46,066 bases of DNA, taken from positions 1-46,066 of the IMG/VR virus record IMGVR_UViG_3300047388_000137; one strand, given 5' to 3'. Of the stretch, positions 6,100-38,741 are shown one piece after another. A program made the position numbers and the translations under genes. Positions within the stretch are counted from its first letter, which is position 1; the number at the start of each line of letters is the position of its first letter. The notes below the pieces were generated by a model. That model searched no databases. It had not been told where the DNA came from and saw only the letters and a program-made list of their open reading frames with translations. Source of the stretch: a virus.

Positions 6100-6120
6100 A
6101 ACTTGTGCTTCAGCTAGTGG

Positions 6121-7347
6121 CTAGAAGCCCGTGGTATCGGTGAGCCCACTCATGACCAAATGTGTGTTCCTGCGTGAAACACCCAAGTTGATGTAACGAG
6201 CAAGGGCCGCCTGCCAGGCATCCTGATCCGTGACCCACCGGGTCGACAGACCATCCTGGTCCAGCATGTGCCAATCCCTGTTGCTGAAGATCTTGATGAA
6301 CCGCTTGTCGAGCATCCGGATCGCGCCGAACGGAGCGAGCCTGTCGCCGACGAGGTCGTACCCGCCGACACTCAGGGCCTCGTACCCACCCTTGAGCTTC
6401 GTGGGCTCGGTGACGTAGCGAACCTGAGACTGCATCAGGTTGAACGTCTGCCGCTGGATGCCCAGCGAGGAGAGCATGACGCCAATCTGGCCGCCGTTGA
6501 CCTTGACCTGGTTGATGTTCTTCTGGATGTTGTCCAGAGAAACAGCGCCGCCGGTCGTGTCGCGGAGGTTGTCCCAGTAGCCGTTGCCCGCGCCGCCGGA
6601 GTTGATCGTTCCGACAGTCAGGCCAGCCGTGGCCGACACGAGCTTCGAGATCCCGTTGTCGATCTCGTTGACGGTGCCCGTCGAGGACACGTTGCCCGCG
6701 ACGTAGCCGAAGTTGGTACCGGCCGTCAGGCCGCCACCAGTGATCGTCGCCAGCGTGATCGACGGGGTCGCGATGTTCACGTCCGTCACCAGGTCAGCCG
6801 CGTTCAGCGAGGAGCCGTTCGCAGCGGTACCGATGTCGAGGACCTGGTTGATGTAGCAGAAGCCCTTGCGCAGCGGCTCCGAGGACACCAGGGTCGGCGT
6901 CACGGTTGCGCCCTGCGTGGCGAATGCCACGACAGCACCCGTACCGTCACCGTAGACCTGGCGAGCCAGGTCGATGGTCAGGTCGTTGCGGAGGAAGTCC
7001 AGCTCGGCCTTGAAGGCCTGGAGGAATGCCCCGCGCGGATCCGCCGACAGCTCGACGCCCGGCCCAGAGATCTGAGCGCGGCCGTACAGGTACTTGAGCT
7101 GGTAGATCGCGTTCGCGTAGCCCTGTGCCGATGAGACCGGCAGGGTGCCGTACTCGGCGCGTGCGCCGATTCCGCCCGAGCGGCGCGAATGCACCGGGAC
7201 GATGGCCCGACGACCGACCAGTTCCTCGTCGCTCGCATCCAGAAGCTGGAAGACGAGCACTTCGTTGTTGAGCTGCTCAACAACAGGAGCGATGTAGAAC
7301 TCCTTGAGGATCGGGTCGAGCGTCGTGGCGATGGAAGGAAATGCCAC
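6121..7347 (-). CDS. Major capsid protein
   Basis: 408 aa, starting with GTG (MAFPSIATTLDPILKEFY) 6 nt after GGGAG. The sequence pattern is that of HK97-fold coat proteins of podoviruses. It has an N-terminal arm, an early helix (PVVEQLNNEVLVFQLLD), the AEYGTLPVSSAQGYANAIY segment and the spine region (FLQAFKAELDFLRNDLTIDL). The C-terminal portion contains the usual P-domain-like strand and helix ending (DWHMLDQDGLSTRW). It directly follows the scaffold gene, the standard order, and is followed by a hairpin. Confidence 0.85.
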   Translation of the reverse strand: MAFPSIATTLDPILKEFYIAPVVEQLNNEVLVFQLLDASDEELVGRRAIVPVHSRRSGGIGARAEYGTLPVSSAQGYANAIYQLKYLYGRAQISGPGVELSADPRGAFLQAFKAELDFLRNDLTIDLARQVYGDGTGAVVAFATQGATVTPTLVSSEPLRKGFCYINQVLDIGTAANGSSLNAADLVTDVNIATPSITLATITGGGLTAGTNFGYVAGNVSSTGTVNEIDNGISKLVSATAGLTVGTINSGGAGNGYWDNLRDTTGGAVSLDNIQKNINQVKVNGGQIGVMLSSLGIQRQTFNLMQSQVRYVTEPTKLKGGYEALSVGGYDLVGDRLAPFGAIRMLDKRFIKIFSNRDWHMLDQDGLSTRWVTDQDAWQAALARYINLGVSRRNTHLVMSGLTDTTGF

Positions 7348-7405
7348 TTGTTACTCCCGTGGGGTTGCAGTTGCGAAGAACCCCGCGGCGGATCGAGGGG
7401 GAGTG

Positions 7406-8326
7406 CTAGGGCAGGAGCTTCGCGGCGGCCATCGCAGCCTTGTGAGCTGCGTCGAGGTCACCACCGAAGTCCATGCCGCGCGAAAGACCGGGCACTGCCG
7501 CCGGAAGCGGAGCCAGTGCAGGGTTGTTCTGCGCTGCGCCCTTGCCGTTCAGGACTCGTGTGAGATGTGCCGAGGTGATCTCCGCGTAGGCGTTCGCACC
7601 GGCAACAAGGTCTCCACCGAAGTACGCGGCGAGCTTGTAGCTGCCGTCGATGTCCTCCTGCGTCCAGGTCGGATTCTGCTCCTTGATGAGCTGCTCTTCC
7701 TGGTTGAGCCGTGCGATGATCTGCCCTGCGCGAATCTCGTTCTGTCGTACCTCGGCCTCGCTCGCGGCCTGCTGCTCGAAGGATGCGAGCCGGGCCTCAA
7801 GAGCCTGAATGCGCTGCTCCTCGGGATCGAGAGAGGACAAGTCCTCCCCGCCAGCCAGTGTCTCCTGGACGTGTGTGGTTGCTGCCGCGGTGGCTTCCGC
7901 CTGCGTCAGTCCTTGCGCCCTGAGAGCGTCGGTCAGCTCCGAGTGGAACTGCACGATCTGCTGAGGATCCTGAAGTGCTGCGTACAACTCGGCCGAGTTC
8001 CTGAGTCCGTCTACGTCAAGGCCGGTTTCTTCGGCCAGCTTCCGATACGGGGCGGCTTCCTGCATCTTGCGCGTGTAGTCCGCCTGCATCGAGTCGTAGA
8101 ACGGCCGGGCTTCGGCCGGGATGGTGCTGGGATCAAGTCGCGTAAAGCTGTCTGCCATCTCTTCGACGGAAGTTGCAGCGTCAGCTACCTGCGTCCCTTC
8201 GGGAGTCGCTTCGGTCGGGGTTGCTGTACTCGGCTCGGTCGGTAGCGCCGCGGCGGCCTCTAGGCCACGTTGGTGCATTTCCTCCGGCGTCGGAGTGACA
8301 GTCCCTTCAGTTGCGAGTTCGGACAA
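7406..8326 (-). CDS. Capsid scaffolding protein
   Basis: 306 aa, Ala-, Glu- and Gln-rich and largely helical, immediately upstream of the major capsid gene. A disordered acidic and Thr-rich N-terminus is followed by long coiled-coil-like helices (EEQRIQALEARLASFEQQAA). The basic C-terminal helix (DAAHKAAMAAAKLLP) is the usual coat-binding element of scaffolds. The start is TTG 8326, 6 nt after AGGAG. No protease motif is seen, so scaffold removal would depend on another factor or on exit through pores. Confidence 0.8.
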   Translation of the reverse strand: MSELATEGTVTPTPEEMHQRGLEAAAALPTEPSTATPTEATPEGTQVADAATSVEEMADSFTRLDPSTIPAEARPFYDSMQADYTRKMQEAAPYRKLAEETGLDVDGLRNSAELYAALQDPQQIVQFHSELTDALRAQGLTQAEATAAATTHVQETLAGGEDLSSLDPEEQRIQALEARLASFEQQAASEAEVRQNEIRAGQIIARLNQEEQLIKEQNPTWTQEDIDGSYKLAAYFGGDLVAGANAYAEITSAHLTRVLNGKGAAQNNPALAPLPAAVPGLSRGMDFGGDLDAAHKAAMAAAKLLP

Positions 8327-27443: not shown

Positions 27444-28586
27444 TTGCGCATCCGCGAGTTCTGCTGGGACTCGTGGGCGAAGTGGGCGTTCGAGCGTTGG
27501 GCCGTTGACCTACCGACGGCCATCGCCGTCGACACTGAGACCACGGGGCTCGGCTTCCACGACGTGGCGTTCTGCGCCACGCTCACCTGGCGGCGTCCGA
27601 ACGGTGACCTCCAGAGTGCGTACATCGAGCTGGACGACGCTGACTGTCGCCCCATCGCGGGCGCGGGGATGCCCCCAGCAGGTGACCCCGAGAACCGGCG
27701 CGCCCTACTGAGGGCGATCCTCCACGGCACGGAGACCTGGGTGTTCTGGAATGCGAAGTTCGACCTCGCGCGCCTCGACTACCTCGGCATCCTGCCCCCG
27801 CTCGACGGGCACATCATCGAGGACGGTCAGCCCATCGCCGCGCTCATCAACGAGAACCGGCGCATGAAGCTGAAGGTCCGCGCCGTCGAGGATCTCGGCT
27901 TCGTGAACACGATCCAGGTTCAGGTGCAGTCCGGCCCGCGTAAGGGCGAGTGGGACGCGAAAGCGAAAGAGGAGCACCTCCTCGGCAAGCTGCGCACGAA
28001 GCTGAAGCTGACCAAGGAGGACGGCTACCACCTGATCCCCCGCGAGGCGATGATCCCGTACGCGCTCACCGACACCGAGCTGACGCTCCGCTGGTGGGAG
28101 AAGCACGCGCCGCTGCTGCCGGAAGATCTCATCCCCGTCTACGACGAGGAGATCGAGGTCGCGCACATCCTGCGCAAGATGGAGGGCAACGGCGTCGGCA
28201 TCGACGTGCCATACCTGACCGAGGCTGAGGACGAGTGGGGCGCGAAGGTGATGACCACCTGGCAGACGTTGGTTGGCCTGATCGGTCGGGATGACTTCAA
28301 CCCCAACTCGCCGAAGCAGCTCCTCGCCGCGTTCAAGACGGCGGGCGTGACGCTGGAGTCAACCGACAAGGCGCACCTCCGCGACATGGTCGCGAACAGG
28401 GCCTCCCCCAAGGAGGCCGTCCAGATCGCCCTCGCTCTGCGTGAGTATCGCGACGCGGAGAAGGTACATGGCACGTACTTGACTTCGCTGCTCGCGGATC
28501 AACGCGACTCGATTGCGCACCCGTGGCTGAACCCAGTCGGCCCCCGTACGGGGCGCATGTCCTCCTCCGTGGCGACGAACGATTAG
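27444..28586 (+). CDS. polA: DNA polymerase A, N-terminal part (exonuclease, palm start)
   Basis: 380 aa, TTG 27444. The 3'-5' exonuclease motifs are intact: Exo I AVDTETTG (D30, E32), Exo II VFWNAKFDLARL, Exo III YALTDTELTL. The thumb and start of the palm follow, ending at TGRMSSSVATND then TAG. Family A polymerases continue this RxSS motif with ..NxQNLP, which is found 955 nt downstream (29542). So this is the 5' part of one polymerase gene interrupted by an insert. It is either spliced or works as a separate subunit. Confidence 0.85.
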   Translation: MRIREFCWDSWAKWAFERWAVDLPTAIAVDTETTGLGFHDVAFCATLTWRRPNGDLQSAYIELDDADCRPIAGAGMPPAGDPENRRALLRAILHGTETWVFWNAKFDLARLDYLGILPPLDGHIIEDGQPIAALINENRRMKLKVRAVEDLGFVNTIQVQVQSGPRKGEWDAKAKEEHLLGKLRTKLKLTKEDGYHLIPREAMIPYALTDTELTLRWWEKHAPLLPEDLIPVYDEEIEVAHILRKMEGNGVGIDVPYLTEAEDEWGAKVMTTWQTLVGLIGRDDFNPNSPKQLLAAFKTAGVTLESTDKAHLRDMVANRASPKEAVQIALALREYRDAEKVHGTYLTSLLADQRDSIAHPWLNPVGPRTGRMSSSVATND

Positions 28587-28932
28587 GAAGCTGACCGAGG
28601 CCCATCGCCGGGCCTATCAGCGCGCCTACCACTCGGCGAACAAGGAGAAGTTCTGGGAGCGGAATCTCCGCGTCAAGTACGGCATCACGCCCCCGGACTA
28701 CTACCGGATGCTCGAAGAGCAGGACGGTGCGTGCGCGATCTGCTTGTCGACGGAGGACTCCTACGGGCGCTCGAAGTTCAGCGTCGACCACGACCATGAG
28801 ACCGGCGCTGTCCGCGGACTGCTGTGTACGCACTGCAACCGCGCCATCGGAATGTTCCGCGACAACGGGGAGCACCTCCAGCGTGCGGCCGACTACATCA
28901 ACTCAGGAGGCGGATGCGTTACGTCCAAATAG
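28582..28932 (+). CDS. HNH (Endo VII-like) homing endonuclease inside polA
   Basis: The open frame covers a helical N-terminus (HRRAYQRAYHSANKEKFWER), NLRVKYGITPPDYYRMLEEQ, then DGACAICL, VDHDHETG and VRGLLCTHCNRAIGMF: a full Endo VII-type nuclease. The first ATG (28708) would remove the N-terminal half. Upstream only ATT 28582, overlapping the polA TAG (ATTAG), or CTG 28591 is available. Neither has a good SD. I give ATT as provisional start (116 aa). Probably the mobility enzyme of the insert. Confidence 0.7.
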   Translation: MRKLTEAHRRAYQRAYHSANKEKFWERNLRVKYGITPPDYYRMLEEQDGACAICLSTEDSYGRSKFSVDHDHETGAVRGLLCTHCNRAIGMFRDNGEHLQRAADYINSGGGCVTSK

Positions 28933-29541
28933 TCCTGACGGACAGCCAGGCCGCACTGCTCGCGACGGGGCTGCCATACCTCACCGATCTGAACGATGAC
29001 CCCGTCGAGTGCGAGCAGATCAAAGCGCTCGCACAGTTCTTCTCAGCGGTCGCATCGAACCCGCTCGCGTTCCCCGTGCGGACACAGGCGATGGCGCGCT
29101 CGATCAAGAAGCGCGCGAAGCGTCTCCGAGCCGGTAGGTAGCTCTGAGCGACATAGAGCTGGCCTGGGCCGCTGGGTTCTTCGACGGCGAAGGCTGCGTG
29201 AGCATCTCACGCACCAAGCACAAGAACGGGCGCGAGTATCACCAACTCAAGGTAAAGGTTGGTCAGCGCGACCCACGCCCCCTCGAACGGCTCGTCGCGA
29301 TGTTCGGCGGAAACTCAAGGACTAACGGACGCGGGGTTGCGCTGTGGGAGGTCTCGTCCAGCGGCGCAGCCGCGATGCTGACGGCGTTGCTTCCGTACCT
29401 GCTCAACAAGCGCGAGCAGGCCGAGGTCGCACTCACATTCCAAGCTCGGAGAAACACCGGGCGCGGCAGGCTCGCCGTCCAGGATCGTGAACAGGACGCA
29501 GCCGACTTCGAGACCGTCAAGCGCCTAAAGCACGTGTATTG
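28584..29541 (+). mobile_element. Insert splitting polA: intron or homing-gene cluster
   Basis: About 955 nt separate GAT (last polA codon) from AACTGGCAAAATCTG. The exon ends in T and the insert can end in TTG just before AAC, as group I introns require (U at the 5' site, G at the 3' end). Splicing there would restore SSSVATND-NWQNLPG. It carries an Endo VII-like HNH gene, a 75 aa gene and a LAGLIDADG gene. I could not trace a full group I core by eye. Confidence 0.6.
28914..29141 (+). CDS. Small hypothetical protein within the polA insert (75 aa)
   Basis: ATG 28914, 3 nt after GGAGGCGG and overlapping the HNH stop by 19 nt. MRYVQIVLTDSQAALLATGL is a strand-helix start; the C-terminus is a basic helix (MARSIKKRAKRLRAGR). 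Unlike its neighbours it has no nuclease motif. It could be a passenger gene or a maturase-like helper. Confidence 0.6.
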   Translation: MRYVQIVLTDSQAALLATGLPYLTDLNDDPVECEQIKALAQFFSAVASNPLAFPVRTQAMARSIKKRAKRLRAGR

Positions 29542-29542
29542 A
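29144..29542 (+). CDS. LAGLIDADG homing endonuclease, CTG start
   Basis: 132 aa single-motif LAGLIDADG protein. ELAWAAGFFDGEGCVSIS is the LAGLIDADG helix with its catalytic acid, followed by LKVKVGQRDPRPLERLVAMF and a second alpha/beta half. One motif implies a homodimer. The frame opens after a TAG at 29135 and offers only CTG 29144, 5 nt after GGTAGG. It shares 32 identical bases with the copy at 34515. Its TGA overlaps the TTG of the downstream polA part. Confidence 0.8.
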   Translation: MSDIELAWAAGFFDGEGCVSISRTKHKNGREYHQLKVKVGQRDPRPLERLVAMFGGNSRTNGRGVALWEVSSSGAAAMLTALLPYLLNKREQAEVALTFQARRNTGRGRLAVQDREQDAADFETVKRLKHVY

Positions 29543-30327
29543 ACTGGCAAAATCTGCCCGGAGATCTGGTCGTTGTTCGCCGGGCCATCACTCCGAAGCA
29601 CCCTGAATGGGTGCTGCACGACTTCGACTTTTCCAAGATAGAGCCGCGCCTCCTCGCCTACTTCGCATCGAAGCGCGGGGACGATTCACTGGCCGGGTAC
29701 ATCCGCGACGGCCGCGACCCATACAAGGCGGTCGTGTCGCGGGTCTACGGAAAGACCGAGGCCGAACTCACCGACGCGGAATACAAACGCGGAAAAATCC
29801 TGTTCCTCTCGCTCATGTATGGCGGGGGGATCAAGACCATCCGCGAGCAGTTCGGCGTCGAGCACAAAGAGGCCAAGCGTCTCATCAACCAGTTTCACGA
29901 CGCATGGCCCATCGTGCGGCACTTGCAGGACGATCTCGTGCGCGTCGCCGAGAGGCGCGGGTACGTGCGCACACCGTGGGGTCGGCATCTTCACATGGAA
30001 GAGTTCGGATCCCACAAAATGTTGAACAAGCTCGTCCAGGGTAGTGCGGCGCACGCCTTGAAGCGTGCGCTGATCCGTGTCGACCGCTGGCTGGTCGAGA
30101 ACCCGCAGCTCCAGTCCCACATGATCCTGACGATCCACGACTCCATCGACTTCGACGGCCCTGCCGACGAGGCCGAGATTCTGCACGAGAACGTGCCCGG
30201 CCTGATGGTCGACGAGCCGCTGATCCAGGCGGTCGTTCCGCTCCTGGTCGAGCACGAGATCTCGCCACACAACTGGGCGGAACATCTGCCCTACGACGAA
30301 TGGAAGGAGAGCCTTGCCCAAGTGTAA
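29539..30327 (+). CDS. polA: DNA polymerase A, C-terminal part (palm/fingers)
   Basis: 262 aa from TTG 29539 (TTGA overlap with the LAGLIDADG stop), if translated alone. NWQNLPG continues the broken RxSS motif. Motif A is DFSKIEPR (D30, E35); motif B is KRGKILFLSLMYGGG (K86, Y94); motif C is ILTIHDSID (H200, D201). All polymerase catalytic residues lie here, with the exonuclease upstream. No SD precedes TTG, which favours splicing or coupling. Confidence 0.85.
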   Translation: MNWQNLPGDLVVVRRAITPKHPEWVLHDFDFSKIEPRLLAYFASKRGDDSLAGYIRDGRDPYKAVVSRVYGKTEAELTDAEYKRGKILFLSLMYGGGIKTIREQFGVEHKEAKRLINQFHDAWPIVRHLQDDLVRVAERRGYVRTPWGRHLHMEEFGSHKMLNKLVQGSAAHALKRALIRVDRWLVENPQLQSHMILTIHDSIDFDGPADEAEILHENVPGLMVDEPLIQAVVPLLVEHEISPHNWAEHLPYDEWKESLAQV

Positions 30328-37874: not shown

Positions 37875-38702
37875 TCAGATCGGGTCGTCCGCGTAGAGCT
37901 TCAGCACCGCGCGCTGGATAAGCTGCAAGCTCGTCTTGTCGTAGAAGCGGCCCATCACGGTCTGCTCCTCCCAGCCGAGCATCTTCTTCACGAGGCGCTC
38001 CTCTACCCCGTTGTCGAGCAGGCTCGACGTGACCGTGCGCCGGAACCAGTGAGCGGTGAACCCCGGCGCGAAGCCGCGGAGGTCATCGATCCAGGTGTCG
38101 TAGGCCACTCGGCAGGTGCCGCGCGTCGTGACGACGTACGTTTCCGGCGAATCGGCCAGCTCGAACAGCACCTCCCCGAGCACGGGGTGGATCGGCACGT
38201 ACCGCGTGCGGTCGCCCTTCCCCCGCTCGACATGCAGCGACCCGGCGGCGAGGTCGACGTTCGACCAGCGCAGCGAGCGGATCTCCCCCTGCCGCATCCC
38301 CGTATAGGTGAGTAGGTGGTACATCAGCCAGCGCCGGTCGCTGTGGATCCGCGCCTTCATCGCGCGCAGCTCCGCGTTCGGGATCGTCTTCGGCTCCTCG
38401 CGCGGAGCGGGGGCGAGGTACACGTCGAGCGTCGGATCCTTGCGGATCATCCCCCGGCGGTGGGCGTAGCGCAGCGCCCCGCCGAGGTGGATCCAGTGCG
38501 TGTGCTTCGTCGTGGCCGCATAGTCGAGCCCGGCGAGGTATTCCTCCAGGTCCCACGGCTCCATGTCCGCAGCCTTCTTGTCGATCAGGTCTAGGTGGTA
38601 CTGGAACTTCTTTGCTGCCTTGTCGAACGCGATCAGGGTGGCGGGCGCGCGCTTCTTGACGGTCTGAAGCCGCGTGCGATATTGCTCCAAGATGATGTCC
38701 AC
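37875..38702 (-). CDS. int: Tyrosine-family integrase
   Basis: 275 aa from GTG 38702, 5 nt after AGGAGG; a TTG at 38741 would add 13 residues but lacks an SD. N-terminal SAM-like core-binding domain, then the catalytic set R137 (TGMRQGE), basic K in GKGDR, H218..R221 (TAHWFRRT), W244 and Y254 (MGRFYDK). It inserts the phage into, and excises it from, the host chromosome. No attP core could be fixed; the adjacent palindrome (38756-38765) is a candidate arm or promoter site. Confidence 0.88.
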   Translation of the reverse strand: MDIILEQYRTRLQTVKKRAPATLIAFDKAAKKFQYHLDLIDKKAADMEPWDLEEYLAGLDYAATTKHTHWIHLGGALRYAHRRGMIRKDPTLDVYLAPAPREEPKTIPNAELRAMKARIHSDRRWLMYHLLTYTGMRQGEIRSLRWSNVDLAAGSLHVERGKGDRTRYVPIHPVLGEVLFELADSPETYVVTTRGTCRVAYDTWIDDLRGFAPGFTAHWFRRTVTSSLLDNGVEERLVKKMLGWEEQTVMGRFYDKTSLQLIQRAVLKLYADDPI

Positions 38703-38741
38703 GGTGTCCTCCTCGGGCGGGTGTGTTAGAGCCTGTGCCAA

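What the first reader, a model, noticed from the sequence alone, without database searches (positions are those of the whole stretch)
27444..30327. DNA polymerase A broken at its RxSS...NLP motif by a two-nuclease insert
The break lies in the most conserved active-site stretch, the kind of site used by polymerase introns such as that of phage SPO1. Ends fit group I rules (T before, TTG at the end), giving SSSVATND-NWQNLPG. The insert has an Endo VII-like gene, a 75 aa gene and a LAGLIDADG gene, an unusual double load. If not spliced, the phage would have a two-subunit polymerase with exonuclease and catalytic parts apart.
Basis: partly seen in the sequence, partly recalled or inferred. Interest (0 to 1): 0.8.

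Follow-up and report, generated by a model that had tools for sequence, protein, structure and literature searches.

The report
Phage DNA polymerase made in halves
In a large family of uncultivated phages the DNA-copying enzyme is encoded by two separate genes, cut at the same point inside the active site; the two nuclease genes seen here are merely among many unrelated genes that have moved into the slot between the halves.

Summary
The break is real, but it is not an intron. Window 27444-28586 (3'-5' exonuclease, thumb, RTGRMSSS) and 29539-30327 (NWQNLP, palm, fingers) together cover one family A DNA polymerase. The cut falls between the E. coli Pol I equivalents T672 and N675. Fifty viral contigs including this one (37 non-redundant) have the same arrangement; 48 show both halves. 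All are cut at the same residue, and the 19 tested form one clade apart from 70 intact relatives (support 100). What lies between the halves differs completely: homing-type endonucleases, glycosyltransferase, aspartate carbamoyltransferase, phosphoesterase, small genes. In four contigs nothing lies there and the two genes overlap by 4 nt (ATGA/GTGA). No Rfam intron is found. In 49 of 50 contigs the codon before the conserved Asn is ATG or one change from it (eight are CTG, ATC, ATT, ATA or ACG), and it usually overlaps or abuts a stop codon, so the catalytic half is translated separately by coupling. Catalytic residues are kept, and both genes are under purifying selection in the subgroup tested. 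Best reading: an ancestral two-subunit PolA whose active site spans both chains. Splicing is refuted with high confidence; reassembly and activity are inferred.

The parts
27444..28586 (+). PolA N-subunit, 380 aa, TTG start: 3'-5' exonuclease (DTET / NAKFD / Y-x3-D) + thumb + RTGRMSSS, then a 5-aa tail VATND and stop
   Evidence: AlphaFold2 model, best PDB match phiVC8 DpoZ 7pbk and Pol I
28582..28932 (+). gap gene 1: Endonuclease VII-like (HNH) ORF without ATG/GTG/TTG before its domain; start probably ATT 28582 (overlapping the N-part stop TAG) or CTG 28591
   Evidence: PF02945 1.8e-26; homolog at the same place in L111, 38% identity; start candidates read from the sequence
28914..29141 (+). 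gap gene 2: 75-aa protein, shortest but one member of a small family found in the gap of 6 of the 7 contigs of the window's subclade
29144..29542 (+). gap gene 3: single-motif LAGLIDADG endonuclease-like ORF (CTG start at best); stop TGA 29540-29542 overlaps the C-part start TTG
   Evidence: PF00961 3e-7; homologs just before the C-part in L005 and L111, 35-36%
29539..30327 (+). PolA C-subunit, start TTG then 261 aa from NWQNLP: palm + fingers, motifs A, B, C (HDS in place of HDE)
   Evidence: AlphaFold2 model, best PDB match Bst Pol I

Best explanation
The locus encodes a family A DNA polymerase in two separately translated subunits. The N-subunit carries the 3'-5' exonuclease, the thumb and the Arg668-equivalent with its SSS. 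The C-subunit starts at the Asn675-equivalent and carries the palm and fingers with both catalytic aspartates. They are translated from one operon: the C-part starts at an ATG or near-ATG codon overlapping or abutting the stop of whatever gene lies upstream (translational coupling). They are then inferred to reassemble through thumb/palm contacts into one enzyme whose primer-template contacts come from both chains. The split happened once in the ancestor of this phage clade. The junction has since served as a slot into which complete genes were dropped; in this phage those are an Endo VII-like nuclease, a small clade-specific gene and a LAGLIDADG nuclease. Shown by sequence: the split, its conserved position, single clade, variable or absent insert, start/stop overlap, conserved active sites, purifying selection in one subgroup. 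Inferred: assembly, activity, coupling as the mode of translation.
For: Same cut in 50 contigs including the window (37 non-redundant at 95% nt; 48 with both halves), gap from -4 to 2198 nt. Four contigs (L116, L121, L210, L232) have no insert...GAAGCATGAACGTACAAAAT, stop TGA overlapping start ATG or GTG. Gap contents unrelated: HEGs, GT2-like ORF, aspartate carbamoyltransferase, phosphoesterase, SLOG protein, small ORFs. Split rows are one side of a branch with SH-aLRT 100, one change against 17.6 in shuffles. In 49 of 50 the codon before the conserved Asn is ATG or one mismatch from it, and a stop codon overlaps or abuts it in 47 of 50; chance product about 1e-9 for 11 divergent contigs. In 8 close contigs pN/pS is 0.28 (N) and 0.22 (C), and the first 12 C-part codons have pN 0.000 with pS 0.71, so translation starts right there. 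Exo I/II/III residues and R668, D705, E710, K758, Y766, H881, D882 equivalents invariant in 19 of 19. Models of each half match Pol I folds, and pLDDT falls below 50 only near ends and one loop, including both sides of the cut, N-part 366-380 and C-part 1-17. Precedent: the split family B polymerase genes 43A/43B of Aeromonas phage 25 co-purify and are active (PMC2988022).
Against: No biochemical proof of assembly. No cultured member: best phage-record identities are about 31%. The window's own C-part departs from the other 18 at two active-site positions (R754 equivalent is Tyr, E883 equivalent is Ser), so activity in this particular phage is less sure. The window's start has no detectable Shine-Dalgarno. 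L111 has a 1-nt frame slip at the start of its C-part. Purifying selection was measured only in the L113-L121 subgroup. The tree is a quick search with long intact branches.
Confidence: 0.88

Rival explanations
1. The insert is a self-splicing (group I or II) intron carrying two homing endonucleases; the mature mRNA encodes one 640-aa polymerase.
For: Phage polymerase genes are classic intron hosts; HEG-type ORFs lie in the insert; the break is in a highly conserved motif.
Against: No Rfam hit in 28400-29700 at E<=10 nor in 12 relatives at gathering. The insert is almost wholly coding. Relatives hold unrelated genes or nothing at the same point. The bases before the downstream part are not constant. 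The downstream part has its own start codon overlapping an upstream stop.
Confidence: 0.02
2. The two parts are made separately but act as two independent enzymes: a proofreading exonuclease and a free-standing exonuclease-less polymerase.
For: Domains fall on separate chains; exonuclease-like proteins without a polymerase exist (7r0t ExnV1 matches the N-part).
Against: The N-part keeps the whole thumb and, right before its stop, the invariant TGR-x-x-S that contacts primer-template in Pol I; the C-part begins with invariant N-x-QN-x-P of the same site. Neither would be conserved to the very edge if the chains worked apart.
Confidence: 0.07
3. A recent HEG insertion broke the polymerase of this phage; the pieces are decaying and another polymerase replicates the genome.
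For: Window-only changes R754->Y and E883->S in the C-part; both nuclease ORFs lack standard start codons.
Against: The split is shared by the whole clade and is not tied to HEGs. Both ORFs are full length, and all exonuclease residues and D705, K758, D882 remain. Only one N-part and one C-part are found in the window.
Confidence: 0.05
4. Frameshifting or translational bypass joins the two parts into one chain.
For: In four contigs the frames overlap at ATGA/GTGA.
Against: In 44 of the 48 contigs with both halves, 164-2198 nt of other genes lie between; no slippery heptamer was seen at the ATGA overlap.
Confidence: 0.01

Closest known systems
Split DNA polymerase of Methylophilales phages MEP401/MEP402 (PMC10580990; OP830906)
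   Same: Family A polymerase in two ORFs (N: exonuclease + start of polymerase domain; C: rest) with a small unknown ORF between; also found in most related metagenomic genomes.
   Different: Cut about 20 residues further on, after SSSSPNLQNFDGEIKTLFLSRYGE and just before motif A, so an independent split; its authors thought an intron possible and left it open. It is far from this clade by sequence.
T4-type gene 43A/43B of Aeromonas phages 25 and 44RR; nrdA split by mobE in Aeh1 (review PMC2988022)
   Same: Essential replication gene in two pieces, sometimes with a homing endonuclease between; the pieces co-purify and are active in phage 25.
   Different: Family B polymerase or reductase, not family A; isolated phages and not a large single-origin clade; no cassette-like turnover of unrelated genes described there.
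E. coli / Bst Pol I (Klenow-type) and vibriophage phiVC8 DpoZ
   Same: Fold, motifs and order of domains; the two subunits together match one such enzyme.
   Different: Those are single chains; here the chain ends after the T672 equivalent and restarts at the N675 equivalent, with D673-P674 replaced by a short tail on one side and a start codon on the other.
Group I introns in phage polymerase genes (SPO1-type)
   Same: Interrupted polymerase gene with HEG-type ORFs.
   Different: No ribozyme core, no constant insert, own start codon for the second part, and insert-free split relatives.

Membership tests
Family A DNA polymerase (PF00476) | Complete polymerase domain with motifs A, B, C | tested here: met
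   Profile 3-124 + 129-381 of 381 across the two ORFs; D705, E710, K758, Y766, D882 equivalents invariant in 19 of 19. In the window R754->Y and E883->S.
Family A DNA polymerase (PF00476) | 3'-5' exonuclease domain with DEDDy residues (proofreading phage type) | tested here: met
   PF01612 30.7 bits against cut-off 23.6; exo I, II, III residues invariant in 19 of 19
Split (genes-in-pieces) polymerase | Two ORFs with own start and stop that together make one enzyme, conserved in relatives | tested here: met
   50 contigs, one cut site, one clade
Split (genes-in-pieces) polymerase | The pieces bind each other and are active together | not testable with these tools
   No wet work; one-chain models only
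Group I intron | Conserved catalytic core (P3-P7) in the insert | tested here: not met
   No Rfam match in 28400-29700 at E<=10; none in 12 split relatives
Group I intron | Exons joined at a fixed boundary with terminal G of the intron | tested here: not met
   Base before the conserved Asn codon is G, C, A or T; base before the start codon also varies
Split intein / trans-splicing protein | Intein halves flanking the break | tested here: not met
   Only 3-6 residues follow the SSS motif before the stop, and the C-part starts at its conserved Asn
Homing endonucleases (the two nuclease ORFs) | Endo VII/HNH and LAGLIDADG domains | tested here: met
   PF02945 1.8e-26, PF00961 3e-7
Homing endonucleases (the two nuclease ORFs) | Site-specific cleavage of a nuclease-free junction | not testable with these tools
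   Needs an enzyme assay

The most novel reading that the evidence does not exclude
A large clade of phages lives with an obligate heterodimeric family A DNA polymerase, split once inside the primer-binding site. Its catalytic subunit is translated by coupling from start codons that drift freely over the near-ATG set, and the junction works as a cassette slot that keeps taking up and losing whole genes without touching either half.
Probability: 0.7. Interest if true: 0.72.

Novelty: new variant of a known kind. Interest (0 to 1): 0.62.

Why it matters
It shows that a replicative polymerase can stay broken in the middle of its active site across a diverse clade. That gives a natural heterodimeric PolA for asking how thumb/exonuclease and palm/fingers recognise each other, and whether proofreading and synthesis are tuned by subunit ratio. 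Gene finders that demand ATG/GTG/TTG will miss or misplace some catalytic subunits, and PolA-based surveys of phage diversity will count such genomes as lacking a full enzyme. It also warns against reading every HEG-loaded split polymerase as an intron; the same question was left open for MEP401.

Tried and rejected
Group I/II intron: nothing. Split intein: no room for intein halves. Frameshift or bypass fusion: genes lie between in 44 of 48. A conserved residue, not a start codon, before the Asn: rejected because the codons include ACG (Thr) besides Leu, Ile, Met, Val, and all but one lie within one base of ATG while intact relatives have Pro there. Searches for cultured relatives in phage records gave at most about 31% identity in the listed hits. 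Prokaryote genome contigs gave no split member. An HEG as the cause of the split: no evidence, since HEGs in the gap were seen only in the window, L005 and L111 among the gaps read, and the split is older than that subclade. Literature searches for an earlier account of this cut site found only MEP401-type and family B cases; the library lacks many subscription papers. One search failed on a wrong frame.

Full report
What is there. The window (a 46-kb virus record, 65% G+C, uncultivated) has two ORFs that together make one family A DNA polymerase: 27444-28586 (N-part, 380 aa) and 29539-30327 (C-part, 261 aa after the start codon). Pfam DNA_pol_A is matched at positions 3-124 by the first and 129-381 by the second; the first also matches the 3'-5' exonuclease family. 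Aligned to Klenow chains (605 residues; the fragment begins at residue 324, established knowledge), the N-part profile ends at chain residue 349 and the C-part profile begins at 352, that is T672 and N675 of E. coli Pol I. The cut therefore lies between the TGR(668)LSS segment and the N(675)LQNIP segment, both of which touch primer-template in Pol I (established knowledge). Between the halves lie an Endonuclease VII-like ORF, a 75-aa ORF and a LAGLIDADG ORF.

Relatives. A scan of IMG/VR with the C-part gave two relatives at 46-48% identity, L001 and L002. Both have the gene broken at exactly the same residue with different genes between. Wider scans with alignments raised the count to 50 contigs including the window, 37 after removing near-copies, 48 with both halves in view. 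The N-part always ends within a few residues after TGR-[MTA]-[SA]-S-[SG]; the C-part always begins one codon before N-x-QN-x-P (the Asn is conserved in all but frame-slipped L111). Every relative at 37% identity or more to the clade's C-parts is split; the more distant ones (about 33% or less), which keep ...SSxDPNFQNLP..., are intact. A tree of 19 split and 70 intact sequences, built without the short N tails, puts the split ones on one side of a branch with SH-aLRT 100, a single change against a shuffled mean of 17.6 (quick method, long branches among the intact rows).

The insert is not an intron. Gap lengths run from -4 to 2198 nt. Contents: HNH/Endo VII + small ORF + LAGLIDADG (window; L111 with one further ORF); phosphoesterase + LAGLIDADG (L005); small-ORF family plus others (L001, L002, L006); the small ORF alone (L084); aspartate carbamoyltransferase (L093); SLOG protein and others (L095); a 255-aa glycosyltransferase-like ORF (named by eye, not by a family search) with ATGA overlaps on both sides (L113, L114, L115 and others); one 63-aa ORF (L119). 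In L116, L121, L210 and L232 there is nothing: the N-part stop and the C-part start share four bases, ATGA or GTGA. Rfam finds no intron in the window insert even at E<=10, nor in twelve relatives. No boundary base is constant. An intron hypothesis cannot account for split relatives without an insert.

How the C-part is translated. In 49 of 50 contigs the codon right before the conserved Asn is ATG or one base from it: ATG 25, GTG 14, ATC 3, TTG 2, ATT 2, CTG, ATA, ACG; the exception, L111, has ATGAAC one frame off through an extra T. In 47 of 50 a stop codon overlaps or abuts this codon. Six of the first 19 contigs (L002, L005, L086, L093, L095, L190) have no ATG/GTG/TTG upstream in frame, and the next one downstream would lose the invariant NxQNxP (L006 has only a distant GTG). 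The chance product of near-ATG codons over 11 divergent contigs is about 1e-9, shared ancestry not removed. Some non-standard starts have strong Shine-Dalgarno pairing (L086 AAGGAGGT, L095 AAAGGAGG, L006), while the window's TTG has none. The simplest reading is termination-reinitiation coupling; this is inferred.

Function. In eight close contigs pooled pN/pS is 0.28 for the N-part and 0.22 for the C-part; over the first 12 C-part codons pN is 0.000 with pS 0.71, so the protein is under selection from its first Asn. All exonuclease residues and R668, D705, E710, K758, Y766, H881, D882 equivalents are invariant in 19 sequences. Single-chain AlphaFold2 models of the halves (pLDDT 80-81) match Pol I folds, and both chain ends at the cut are below pLDDT 50, as expected if they order only in the complex. 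No second copy of either half was detected in the window. The mechanism proposed is reassembly of the two chains into one proofreading polymerase. It is supported by precedent: gene 43A/43B products of Aeromonas phage 25 co-purify and are active, and split NrdA of Aeh1 is fully functional (review PMC2988022). It is not proven here.

The nucleases. HEG ORFs in the gap were seen in the window, L005 and L111 only among the gaps read, one subclade of a larger split clade. L111 has homologs of both window nucleases in the same order at 36-38% identity. They most likely invaded an already split gene. Whether an HEG or intron caused the original split is unknown.

Novelty. Split polymerases are known (T4-type family B; MEP401-type family A, cut about 20 residues further on). 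I found no account of this cut site, of a clade-wide two-subunit family A enzyme, of the cassette-like slot, or of the drifting start codons; the library searched is incomplete. I file it as a new variant of a known kind.

Noticed in passing
window 29782-29784 and 30142-30144 (C-part residues 81 and 201): The window's C-part alone among 19 has Tyr for the R754 equivalent and Ser for the E883 equivalent (HDS instead of HDE); this phage's polymerase may be altered or impaired.
   Followed up: partly
window 28914-29141; L001, L002, L006, L084, L111 gaps: The 75-aa ORF belongs to a small family found in the polymerase gap of 6 of 7 contigs of this subclade, alone in L084; a possible accessory subunit. 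No Pfam or PHROG match.
   Followed up: partly
window 28582-28932, 29144-29542; L006 3824; L111 dGTP gene: Other genes in these phages also seem to lack ATG/GTG/TTG starts (L006 N-part ATC, window nuclease ORFs ATT/CTG, perhaps L111 CTG), hinting at wider use of near-ATG starts.
   Followed up: partly
L093 5070-6002: A 310-aa aspartate carbamoyltransferase ORF in a phage contig, sitting between the polymerase halves with an ATTAA overlap to the C-part.
   Followed up: partly
C-part residue 89 (F762 equivalent): Leu in 10 split members including the window subclade, Phe in the 9 others (L113-like and L190); the residue used in PolA-based ecology.
   Followed up: no
window 37878-38741 (-): A phage integrase-family ORF (PF00589), so the phage may be temperate.
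   Followed up: no
L118 1602-2131: Cluster of five tRNA genes within about 530 nt in a split-polymerase contig.
   Followed up: no
L091 (MEP401) 6111-8221: MEP401 polymerase is split at another point, just before motif A, with a 77-aa ORF between; an independent split within about 30 residues of this one.
   Followed up: yes
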